The position numbers were made by a program, and so were the translations under genes. 8,468 nt of DNA from Clostridia bacterium (GTDB lineage: Bacteria > UBA6262 > WVXT01 > JAUXBS01): the NCBI GenBank assembly GCA_030618495.1, contig JAUXDE010000077.1:1-8468 (forward strand), read 5' to 3'. The notes under the pieces were generated by a model that ran no database searches, was not told the DNA's origin, and saw only the letters and a list, made by a program, of their open reading frames with translations. Shown piece by piece: positions 7,528 to 8,468 of the stretch. Positions within the stretch are counted from its first letter, which is position 1, and every line of letters starts with the position of its first letter.

Positions 7528-7559
7528 TTCTATAGCGCCGCGCTGGTAAGATAAGCGCT
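7517..7559. repeat. GC-rich inverted repeats at the 3' end of rplA
   Basis: CCAGCGC (7517-7523), inside the last rplA codons, is complementary to GCGCTGG (7540-7546). AGCGC-C-GCGCT (7534-7544) and AGCGCT (7554-7559) add overlapping palindromes. The sequence can fold into alternative hairpins after or across the rplA stop. No T-tract follows, so it is not a standard intrinsic terminator; it might stabilise the 3' end of the mRNA or work with a termination factor. Confidence 0.5.
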
Positions 7560-7629
7560 TTAAAGGGTACAACATATCAAACCACACCAGAAAAACGAGT
7601 CAACTTCATATTATGATTCTATGCCGGTT

Positions 7630-7642
7630 AACTGAATTAGTT
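7630..7642. repeat. Upstream palindromic element resembling the operator
   Basis: AACT and AGTT arms flank GAATT. The 10-base core TGAATTAGTT (7633-7642) is repeated exactly at 7762-7771 inside the promoter palindrome. The centres are about 128 bp apart. The arms are only 4 bp, so this could be chance in AT-rich DNA. Confidence 0.3.
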
Positions 7643-7750
7643 GCACGTTTTTACATCTTTTATTATTTTCCTCTATCTTTTTGTATCTATTCATAATAGC
7701 CCGCATAATCTAACTTTTTCTTTCAGTCGACAAAAAAAATAATTTTTTAC

Positions 7751-7779
7751 TTGACAAACTTTGAATTAGTTTGTATAAT
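7751..7779 (+). promoter_or_regulatory. Perfect-consensus promoter of the HTH cassette
   Basis: TTGACA (7751-7756) and TATAAT (7774-7779) are both perfect and separated by 17 bases, the strongest match to a sigma70 consensus in the window. Transcription should start near 7786, leaving a leader of about 46 bases before the ATG at 7832. A promoter this good, without activator sites, is often held down by a repressor, and a palindrome fills its spacer. Confidence 0.92.
7754..7774. promoter_or_regulatory. Candidate operator: 7+7 bp palindrome inside the promoter
   Basis: ACAAACT (7754-7760) and AGTTTGT (7768-7774) are perfect inverted repeats with a 7-base centre. Arm centres are 14 bp apart, which is longer than one helical turn. 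The palindrome spans from the last bases of the -35 to the first base of the -10, so a protein bound here would block RNA polymerase. The product of the next gene is the obvious candidate binder; this is inference. Confidence 0.6.
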
Positions 7780-7831: not shown

Positions 7832-8149
7832 ATGGAACGAAGAATAGTAAAAGATGTTATGAGCATTAAAGAGCTCTCAGAATATGTTGGTCTGAGCAAA
7901 TCAAAAATATACCAGTTGATTCGCAACAAGAGAATACCTGCTTCAAAGATTGGCAGGCAATATAAGTTTTCCAAAGAAATAATTGATTCCTGGCTAAAAG
8001 AAAAAATTATAACATGCAGCGGTGATGTCCAGATGAAGTTGCCAATTGGAAAAAAAGAAAAGGATATTACGGCAGTGAAGGCGTCAAAGCCAAAAAAAGA
8101 GGAGGTGAAAGAAAATGGCAGTAAAAAAGAAGAAGAAAAAGGTAGCTAA
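7832..8149 (+). CDS. Excisionase/MerR-type helix-turn-helix protein with charged tail
   Basis: The 105-residue protein has a winged helix-turn-helix domain of the excisionase/AlpA/HTH_17 type at about residues 10-56: MSIKELSEYVGLSKSKIYQL is helix-turn-helix, and IPASKIGRQYKFSKEIIDSWL forms the wing and closing helix. This domain binds DNA, as in transcription regulators, phage excisionases and plasmid proteins. Residues about 73-105 are low-complexity Lys/Glu-rich and probably disordered. AAAGG (7821-7825), six bases before the ATG, supports the start over Met10, which lacks a site. It is the first gene after the consensus promoter and palindrome, so it may regulate itself. No integrase or attachment site is seen, so excision activity is not supported. 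Its last 35 bases overlap the lysine-rich gene in another frame. Confidence 0.85.
   Translation: MERRIVKDVMSIKELSEYVGLSKSKIYQLIRNKRIPASKIGRQYKFSKEIIDSWLKEKIITCSGDVQMKLPIGKKEKDITAVKASKPKKEEVKENGSKKEEEKGS
8099..8108 (+). promoter_or_regulatory. Near-perfect ribosome binding site for the polylysine gene
   Basis: GAGGAGGTGA matches the complement of the 16S rRNA 3' end almost completely. AGGAGG (8100-8105) lies nine bases before the ATG at 8115. It lies within the HTH coding region, where it is read as part of the Lys/Glu tail. It is stronger than the HTH gene's own site and decides the start of the next gene. Confidence 0.8.
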
Positions 8150-8189
8150 GAAAAAGGCCAAGAAAAAGGCTAAAAAGAAAAAAAAGTAA
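8115..8189 (+). CDS. 24-residue polylysine protein, histone H1-tail-like
   Basis: This tiny frame encodes Met-Ala-Val, six lysines, Val, then three AKKK units and a run of lysines to the stop: 17 of 24 residues are Lys, the rest Ala, Val and the initiator Met. It has no domain; the composition resembles histone H1-type tails and bacterial AKKK-repeat DNA compaction tails, so nonspecific nucleic-acid or ribosome binding is a reasonable inference. Reality is supported by the near-perfect ribosome binding site, and by Ala and Val residues falling in a regular pattern instead of random codons. It overlaps the last 35 bases of the HTH gene in the +1 frame and ends 37 bp before the repeat-protein gene. 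Lysine-rich AAA/AAG frames can arise by chance in purine-rich DNA, hence the moderate confidence. Confidence 0.62.
   Translation: MAVKKKKKKVAKKKAKKKAKKKKK
8145..8180 (+). repeat. Three tandem 12-base AKKK repeats
   Basis: Three consecutive 12-base units (8145-8156, 8157-8168, 8169-8180) of the form GCTAAGAAAAAG encode Ala-Lys-Lys-Lys. The first two differ by one base (GCT/GCC); the third shifts AAG and AAA. Such repeats can expand or shrink by slippage. Confidence 0.75.
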
Positions 8190-8226
8190 CTCATTAAAAA
8201 AGTAGCTTAAGGAATGGAGGAAAGGG

Positions 8227-8415
8227 ATGGCTGAAAAAGTATTAAAAGTAGGCCTGAAAAGGGAAAAAGGTTATCTTTATTATATCGATAAGAAAGGCAA
8301 TCTTGCCAGGGCAAAAATGGCAAGGGGCGGCAAAAAAGGCGGAAGCCCAAAAGTGCTTGAGAAGACAGGGATAAAAAGAGCAAAAGGATACTTGTACTTC
8401 ATCGATAAGAATTGA
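8227..8415 (+). CDS. Basic repeat protein of unknown function, interrupted by TGA
   Basis: Sixty-two residues are read before a TGA at 8413-8415. I do not recognise a named family. The protein is a tandem of a 39-residue unit: residues 9-47 are unit 1, with the core KGYLYYIDKKGNLARAKMAR, and unit 2 starts at residue 48 (GIKRAKGYLYFIDKN). The unit has an aromatic beta-strand-like stretch, a turn and a very basic segment ending RGGKKGG. The TGA falls where unit 1 has Gly24 (GGC), and the same frame continues past it with DVSRAKMVRGG. GGAGG (8216-8220), six bases before the ATG, is a good ribosome binding site. It is probably cotranscribed with the HTH and polylysine genes. As translated it is a truncated one-and-a-half-repeat protein; the original likely ran beyond the window edge. 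Confidence 0.8.
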   Translation: MAEKVLKVGLKREKGYLYYIDKKGNLARAKMARGGKKGGSPKVLEKTGIKRAKGYLYFIDKN

Positions 8416-8468
8416 GATGTTTCCCGAGCAAAAATGGTAAGAGGCGGAAAGAGAAAGAAGAAGAAAGC
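8251..8468 (+). repeat. Two 39-codon tandem units in the basic repeat gene
   Basis: Unit 1 is 8251-8367 and unit 2 is 8368-8468, cut by the window edge. Shared positions include K-R-x-K-GYLY-x-IDK at the start and RAKM-x-RGGK at the end, with differences mostly at third bases and a few codons. The units diverge at the DNA level, so the duplication is not recent. Confidence 0.8.
8416..8468 (+). pseudogene. In-frame continuation of repeat unit 2 after the TGA
   Basis: The frame of the preceding gene stays open after its TGA to the window end and encodes DVSRAKMVRGGKRKKKK, clearly the second half of unit 2 (unit 1 has NLARAKMARGGKKGG). Conservation of RAKM-x-RGG shows that it was coding, and perhaps still is. 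A single GGA-to-TGA change, a sequencing error or stop-codon read-through would explain it. No separate start with a ribosome binding site is seen; an in-frame ATG at 8434 lies inside the motif. Confidence 0.6.

What the first reader, a model, noticed from the sequence alone, without database searches (positions are those of the whole stretch)
7832..8468. Candidate new module: HTH regulator, polylysine peptide and basic 39-residue-repeat protein
Three small genes share one consensus promoter, and each has a ribosome binding site. All products are rich in lysine: a DNA-binding HTH with a charged tail, a polylysine peptide, and repeats ending in RGGKKGG. I infer a small autoregulated nucleic-acid-binding or chromatin-like system. 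I know of no described system with this composition, but absence from memory is not proof of novelty.
Basis: inference. Interest (0 to 1): 0.65.

Follow-up and report, generated by a model that had tools for sequence, protein, structure and literature searches.

The report
Conserved regulator, polylysine, basic β-repeat operon
The three small lysine-rich genes at the end of this contig are a real operon, recurring in other bacterial phyla and built around an unnamed basic repeat protein that nearly all Elusimicrobiota and most Omnitrophota carry; it is probably a DNA- or RNA-coating protein with a detachable histone-H1-like lysine tail.

Summary
An HTH gene (7832-8149), a polylysine gene (8115-8189) and a basic repeat gene (8227-8415) follow a perfect sigma-70 promoter (7751-7779). 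The repeat gene is broken by an in-frame TGA (8413-8415) at a conserved glycine; an intact copy lies elsewhere in the genome. The same HTH-polylysine-repeat order recurs in another phylum (6 genomes), and HTH plus repeat in all four sister genomes and in 32 of 51 Elusimicrobiota loci examined. The repeat protein ('REP', my label) occurs in 142/149 Elusimicrobiota and 243/384 Omnitrophota genomes. It matches no curated family above cut-off and no solved fold convincingly; AlphaFold gives a confident all-beta two-unit model. The polylysine peptide is a detached version of the lysine tail fused to REP elsewhere, and the regulator's 'charged tail' is the polylysine gene read in another frame. Best explanation: an abundant, HTH-regulated nucleic-acid-binding (nucleoid-type) protein with an H1-like tail. 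Binding was not testable; RNA or ribosome binding is a serious rival. All genomes tested also have HU, so REP is no HU substitute.

The parts
7751..7779 (+). Promoter of the operon, perfect sigma-70 consensus TTGACA-N17-TATAAT; spacer holds the dyad CAAACT-N7-AGTTTG (candidate operator)
   Evidence: 12/12; 27 other REP-linked HTH genes, most with 11-12 of 12 hexamer matches; commonly 41 nt before the ATG in Elusimicrobiota; dyad exact in the window, weak across relatives
7832..8149 (+). HTH_17 / excisionase-family DNA-binding protein, 105 aa; last ~12 residues are the polylysine gene read in another frame
   Evidence: clade of REP-linked HTHs; overlap analysis
8099..8108 (+). Shine-Dalgarno of the polylysine gene (GAGGAGGTGA), inside the HTH gene
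   Evidence: equivalent in L090, L096, L104, L108, L111, L113
8115..8189 (+). Polylysine peptide MAVKKKKKKVAKKKAKKKAKKKKK, 24 aa: detached version of the lysine tail that relatives carry fused to the repeat protein
8216..8220 (+). Shine-Dalgarno (GGAGG) of the repeat gene
8227..8415 (+). REP gene, copy 1: basic beta-repeat protein, read to an in-frame TGA (62 aa: unit 1 and most of unit 2)
   Evidence: (1 TGA inside)
8233..8346 (+). REP unit 1 (38 aa)
8413..8415 (+). In-frame TGA at the conserved Gly of unit 2 (a glycine codon in the paralogue on C178)
8359..8463 (+). REP unit 2, broken by the TGA but otherwise conserved, running into a lysine tail at the contig end
   Evidence: (E 6.8e-19 across the stop)

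Best explanation
The operon makes a small, probably abundant, nucleic-acid-binding protein (REP) under a dedicated HTH regulator. REP is one or two copies of a ~38-residue all-beta unit, itself strongly basic, usually ending in a lysine- or arginine-rich disordered tail like that of bacterial H1-like proteins. In the window's genome and one other phylum part of the tail is a separate polylysine peptide whose gene overlaps the HTH gene (probably translationally coupled). I infer that the folded units give the protein its shape and oligomeric state, the tail or peptide coats and bridges DNA (nucleoid compaction beside HU), and the HTH keeps the near-consensus promoter in check. Shown: genes, units, tail, order, promoter and its conservation, dedicated HTH clade, predicted fold. 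Inferred: DNA as the ligand, abundance, compaction, autoregulation.
For: REP in 142/149 Elusimicrobiota (118/122 good genomes), 243/384 Omnitrophota, 13/16 of the G460 phylum and 5/6 of the window's phylum, usually one gene per genome: a housekeeping pattern. Basic even without tail (pI 10.1, charge +12.5), +47.5 with tail. Tails H1-like, (KKKVA)n, RRSRSR or TTKRKTTK. HTH upstream in 5/6, 5/13 and 32/51 loci of three phyla, one HTH clade, near-consensus promoter in nearly all. Polylysine selected as protein: 46 of 60 codon differences synonymous in its frame, 0 of 56 in the HTH frame; three tandem copies in L104. H1-like bacterial tails bind DNA (AlgP; PMC9239181).
Against: No binding data. 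No matched family or fold implies DNA binding. All 30 genomes tested keep HU/IHF-family proteins. Lysine tails also bind RNA and polyphosphate. Some Elusimicrobiota lack both tail and linked HTH (L166-L171), so neither is essential. The window's own copy 1 is broken by TGA.
Confidence: 0.42

Rival explanations
1. REP is an RNA- or ribosome-associated protein (RNA chaperone, ribosome-binding or hibernation-type factor), the lysine tail acting like ribosomal-protein extensions.
For: Locus follows secE-nusG-rplK-rplA in the window and in f2 genomes and rplM-rpsI-like genes in L133 (from sequence appearance); aromatic GYLYF strand in a basic all-beta protein; the second polylysine gene of this genome stands before a DUF5679 protein.
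Against: Elsewhere the flanks vary (nadX/uvrA, dnaE, tpiA, pgi); no match to a ribosomal or RNA-binding family above cut-off.
Confidence: 0.27
2. The lysine tail tethers polyphosphate or another polyanionic granule to the nucleoid, as AlgP and PhaF do in Pseudomonas.
For: Tail composition comparable to AlgP, whose tail binds DNA and is needed for polyP granule spacing (PMC9239181).
Against: Many REPs have little or no tail yet the core is conserved; no polyP gene seen next to it.
Confidence: 0.08
3. Mobile-element or phage accessory module: the HTH is an excisionase or phage regulator and REP a phage-derived protein.
For: HTH matches excisionase models; REP-like proteins in seven viral contigs.
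Against: Near-universal, mostly single-copy with conserved synteny (nadX-REP-uvrA in Omnitrophota); HTH tree groups largely by phylum; no integrase in the loci read.
Confidence: 0.05
4. Artefact: lysine-rich ORFs are chance products of A/G-rich DNA and the repeat is noise.
For: Very low complexity of the polylysine stretch; TGA inside the repeat gene.
Against: Repeat conserved across phyla at E around 1e-20; polylysine frame under synonymous constraint; the lysine-repeat pattern has 8 matches in 1.69 Mb against 0 for its reversed control.
Confidence: 0.01

Closest known systems
Bacterial H1-like proteins (AlgP, PhaF of Pseudomonas; Chlamydia Hc1/Hc2)
   Same: Small basic proteins with a lysine-rich disordered tail of short repeats (AlgP: PMC9239181).
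   Different: AlgP has an alpha-helical N-terminal domain and KPAA repeats; REP has an all-beta repeat core, KKKVA repeats, a linked HTH gene and, in some genomes, the tail as a separate peptide. No sequence relation found; the Hc1/Hc2 comparison is from memory.
IHF histones and 'bacterial dimer' histones (PMC11390915)
   Same: Chromatin-type proteins reported from the same phyla (Omnitrophota, Elusimicrobiota).
   Different: Histone fold (helical) against an all-beta model; IHF histones share an operon with an IHF-like gene, REP with HTH_17.
HTH_17 / excisionase-family DNA-binding proteins (PF12728, TIGR01764)
   Same: The regulator is a clear member by score.
   Different: A distinct clade tied to REP; no integrase in the neighbourhood.
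YWTD / DUF5050 beta-propeller blades, WW domain
   Same: Motif GYLYFIDxxGDVSRAKM resembles the blade or hairpin motif; LRP6 blades E 0.006, DUF5050 0.013, WW 0.0072.
   Different: None is a significant match; only one or two units and three strands each, so no closed propeller in one chain.

Membership tests
HTH_17 (PF12728) / excisionase-family HTH (TIGR01764) | Model score above curated cut-off | tested here: met
   55.5 bits against 27; 58.6 against 28.8
Phage excisionase (as a function) | Integrase or att-bearing element next to the gene | tested here: not met
   None among the genes identified in the window or apparent in the related loci read
MADS defence regulator MAD1 | NCBIfam equivalog cut-off and the other mad genes nearby | tested here: not met
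   50.6 bits against a cut-off of 80; no other mad gene seen; PADLOC mad1 only 34.5 bits
HU/IHF (PF00216) | Bac_DNA_binding domain in REP | tested here: not met
   No match of REP in Pfam; HU exists separately in all 30 genomes tested
Prokaryotic histones | Helical histone fold | tested here: not met
   Confident models contain only beta strands
H1-like lysine-rich proteins | Lysine-rich repetitive tail | tested here: met
   Tails; charge +47.5 for G003
H1-like lysine-rich proteins | DNA binding and condensation | not testable with these tools
   No experimental data
YWTD / LDL-receptor class B propeller | Significant sequence match and blade geometry | tested here: inconclusive
   Best E 0.006 summed over repeats, single stretches not significant; LRP6 chains at VIA Z 2.2-2.3, rmsd 3.1-3.5 over 50 residues
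WW domain (PF00397) | Significant Pfam match | tested here: not met
   2 of 52 members at best E 0.0072; not significant

The most novel reading that the evidence does not exclude
REP is a new architectural DNA-binding family with a new or sub-propeller fold: one- or two-blade chains assemble into a ring (for example three two-unit chains giving six blades) whose lysine tails, fused or made as separate peptides, wrap or bridge DNA. It would be a core chromatin component of Elusimicrobiota and Omnitrophota, in several lineages with its own transcriptional regulator.
Probability: 0.13. Interest if true: 0.85.

Novelty: new variant of a known kind. Interest (0 to 1): 0.62.

Why it matters
A gene carried by nearly every genome of one phylum and most of another, apparently including the cultured Endomicrobium proavitum, has no curated family or solved fold that I could find. 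If it is a nucleoid protein, it adds an all-beta architecture and a detachable lysine tail to the short list of bacterial chromatin proteins, in phyla that also hold unusual histones. The conserved promoter, dedicated regulator and tail variation make it directly testable with recombinant proteins.

Tried and rejected
TGA as glycine (code 25), because the stop sits at a conserved Gly: rejected, TGA ends 7 of 28 genes examined, including rplA. HU replacement: rejected, HU in 30/30 genomes. Known family: Pfam, NCBIfam, PHROGs and PADLOC gave nothing above cut-off or significant for REP. Weak hits (FaeA, DotY, the BaiB ligase hairpin, WW, YWTD, phrog_9154) I read as shared hairpin motifs. Fold search: no PDB or BFVD match at E<=0.001; VIA best Z 3.6 (alpha-crystallin domains, mostly 5-7 A rmsd) and 3.1 with the second model, not meaningful; several beta-propeller chains appear among the better-rmsd rows; absence of a match does not prove a new fold. 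Plasmids: no match. HTH against PDB sequences: none at 0.01. Promoter dyad as a conserved operator: exact in the window, only a weak excess elsewhere (3.14 against 2.15, sd 0.23, for one of five centres tried, in related sequences). Literature on a lysine-rich protein of these phyla: none found, in an open-access library only.

Full report
WHAT IS THERE. The window is a whole contig (G000:C110) of a 1.69 Mb, 98% complete genome in 179 contigs. Ordinary genes run up to secE-nusG-rplK-rplA. After rplA, a perfect sigma-70 promoter (7751-7779) is followed by an HTH gene (7832-8149), a polylysine ORF overlapping its 3' end in another frame (8115-8189) and a basic repeat gene, here called REP (from 8227). 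The second REP unit carries a TGA (8413-8415) at a position that is glycine in the relatives and in the paralogue. Downstream of the TGA the frame is still open and unit-like (E 6.8e-19 across the stop) and runs into lysines at the contig end. TGA is an ordinary stop in this genome, so this is a recent nonsense mutation or an assembly error. A second, intact copy (78 aa, two units) lies on contig C178 upstream of a pgi-like gene. C178 starts with a lysine run whose frame and 8-nt overlap would fit as the continuation of the window's REP tail. Among the eight matches of the lysine-repeat pattern in the genome, only those on C178 lie right at a contig end, so the two contigs may be neighbours; this is not proven.

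THE REPEAT FAMILY. A profile of the 38-residue unit (A2) finds REP in 243 of 384 genomes of the phylum of a named Omnitrophota record, 33 of 386 genomes of a broad sample centred on the window, 13 of 16 genomes of the phylum of G460, 142 of 149 genomes of the phylum of G588 and 5 of 6 of the window's own phylum. Nearly all genomes have one gene of one or two units. Consensus of a unit: KVAKVGVKKExGYLYFIDKxGDVSRAKMARGG. Tails differ: none, KKKKR, RRSRSRRR, long (KKKVA)n, or TTKRKTTK. In Omnitrophota the gene lies between an aspartate-dehydrogenase-like gene and, usually, uvrA (neighbours named from sequence appearance, not by a family search). REP-like proteins also occur in seven viral contigs.

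THE MODULE. In four sister genomes (another family of the same order) the order is rplA-HTH-REP-tpiA, with the HTH about 70% identical to the window's and the lysine tail fused to REP. In six genomes of family f73, in another phylum, the order is HTH-polylysine-REP with the same overlap, the same kind of Shine-Dalgarno and a lysine tail also on REP (one REP partly masked). Counting an HTH upstream on the same strand within 2 kb: window phylum 5/6, G460 phylum 5/13, Elusimicrobiota 32/51, Omnitrophota 0/30, other lineages 0/18. The genomes tested hold only one to three such HTHs, so chance adjacency is negligible. REP-linked HTHs form one clade apart from paralogous HTH_17 proteins (0.997) and group largely by phylum, as expected of vertical descent (short alignment, so internal support is low). 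The linked HTH genes have near-consensus promoters, commonly 41 nt before the start codon in Elusimicrobiota.

THE POLYLYSINE PEPTIDE IS A GENE, AND EXPLAINS THE CHARGED TAIL. In the overlap of f73 genomes, codon differences are 46 synonymous to 14 non-synonymous in the polylysine frame and 0 to 56 in the HTH frame. So the polylysine frame is the one selected, and the acidic/basic tail of the HTH is its shadow; sister genomes without a polylysine gene have HTHs without that tail. One genome has three tandem polylysine genes, each behind GGAGG or GGGAGG (L104). The peptide's motif is that of the fused REP tails, so I read it as a detached tail. Another copy in the window's genome follows argB and precedes a DUF5679 protein.

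STRUCTURE. AlphaFold models (23 and 52 sequences) have mean pLDDT 85.9 and 90.5 and consist of six strands, three per unit. Foldseek finds nothing at E<=0.001 in PDB or BFVD. The second look gives Z up to 3.6, mostly alpha-crystallin domains at 5-7 A, with several beta-propeller chains at lower rmsd. The family profile also touches LRP6 YWTD blades (E 0.006) and two members touch DUF5050, none significant. A chain of one or two blade-like units that closes a ring by oligomerising is a possible but untested reading.

HOW IT PROBABLY WORKS. Basic core, H1-like tail, near-universal mostly single-copy presence, strong promoter and a dedicated HTH fit an abundant nucleic-acid-coating protein under its own regulator. 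DNA is favoured because lysine-rich H1-like tails of bacteria are known DNA binders (AlgP, PMC9239181). RNA or ribosome binding is nearly as plausible. HU is present in all 30 genomes tested, so REP would act beside HU. In several Elusimicrobiota a KamA-type aminomutase gene stands between HTH and REP (two tested, one above the lysine 2,3-aminomutase cut-off), which may hint at a link to lysine metabolism or osmotic stress.

COMPARISON AND NOVELTY. The regulator is an ordinary HTH_17 protein. REP belongs to no curated family found, is not HU, not a histone and not a known defence component. It works, on inference, like an H1-like nucleoid protein but is not a member of any such family by sequence or fold. 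The paper found on chromatin in these phyla (PMC11390915) describes histone-fold proteins. I rate it a new variant of a known kind; if binding and a ring structure were shown it would be more than that.

Noticed in passing
L006:4020-3933 (minus), genome contig C108: Another polylysine gene (MACKAKKKTVKKKPVKKKKKAAKKKKK, GTG start) directly after argB and before a 48-aa DUF5679 protein (PF18930, E 1.1e-10).
   Followed up: partly
L104:1138-1375: Three tandem polylysine genes between HTH and REP; the HTH frame runs through all three.
   Followed up: partly
L144, L145, L148, L152, L179, L182, L184, L185: A KamA-type radical SAM gene stands between HTH and REP in several Elusimicrobiota families; L184's passes the lysine 2,3-aminomutase cut-off and L185's is KamA family, the others were judged by sequence appearance only.
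   Followed up: partly
L017:7398-7473: Sister genomes have an in-frame ATG behind AGGAGG inside the REP tail, so a polylysine peptide might also arise from an internal start.
   Followed up: no
L130:1294-1419 and L135:1284-1442 (reverse-strand coordinates): In two small f58 (Endomicrobium-like) genomes the HTH next to REP is decayed while REP is intact, so the regulator seems more dispensable than REP.
   Followed up: no
L019-L025 (viral contigs): Contigs classed as viral encode one- or two-unit REP-like proteins without long lysine tails; hosts unknown.
   Followed up: no
L014 (SBAZ01000015.1): The record is titled Planctomycetales, but its genome fell in the same phylum set as the Omnitrophota record; the title looks outdated.
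   Followed up: no
L029-L056 (Omnitrophota): One-unit REPs mostly have arginine/serine-rich tails and two-unit REPs lysine-rich ones, at the same nadX-uvrA locus: a switch of tail chemistry.
   Followed up: no
window 7528-7750: rplA is not followed by rplJ-rplL-rpoB here, nor in the f2 genomes, where HTH-REP-tpiA follows.
   Followed up: no
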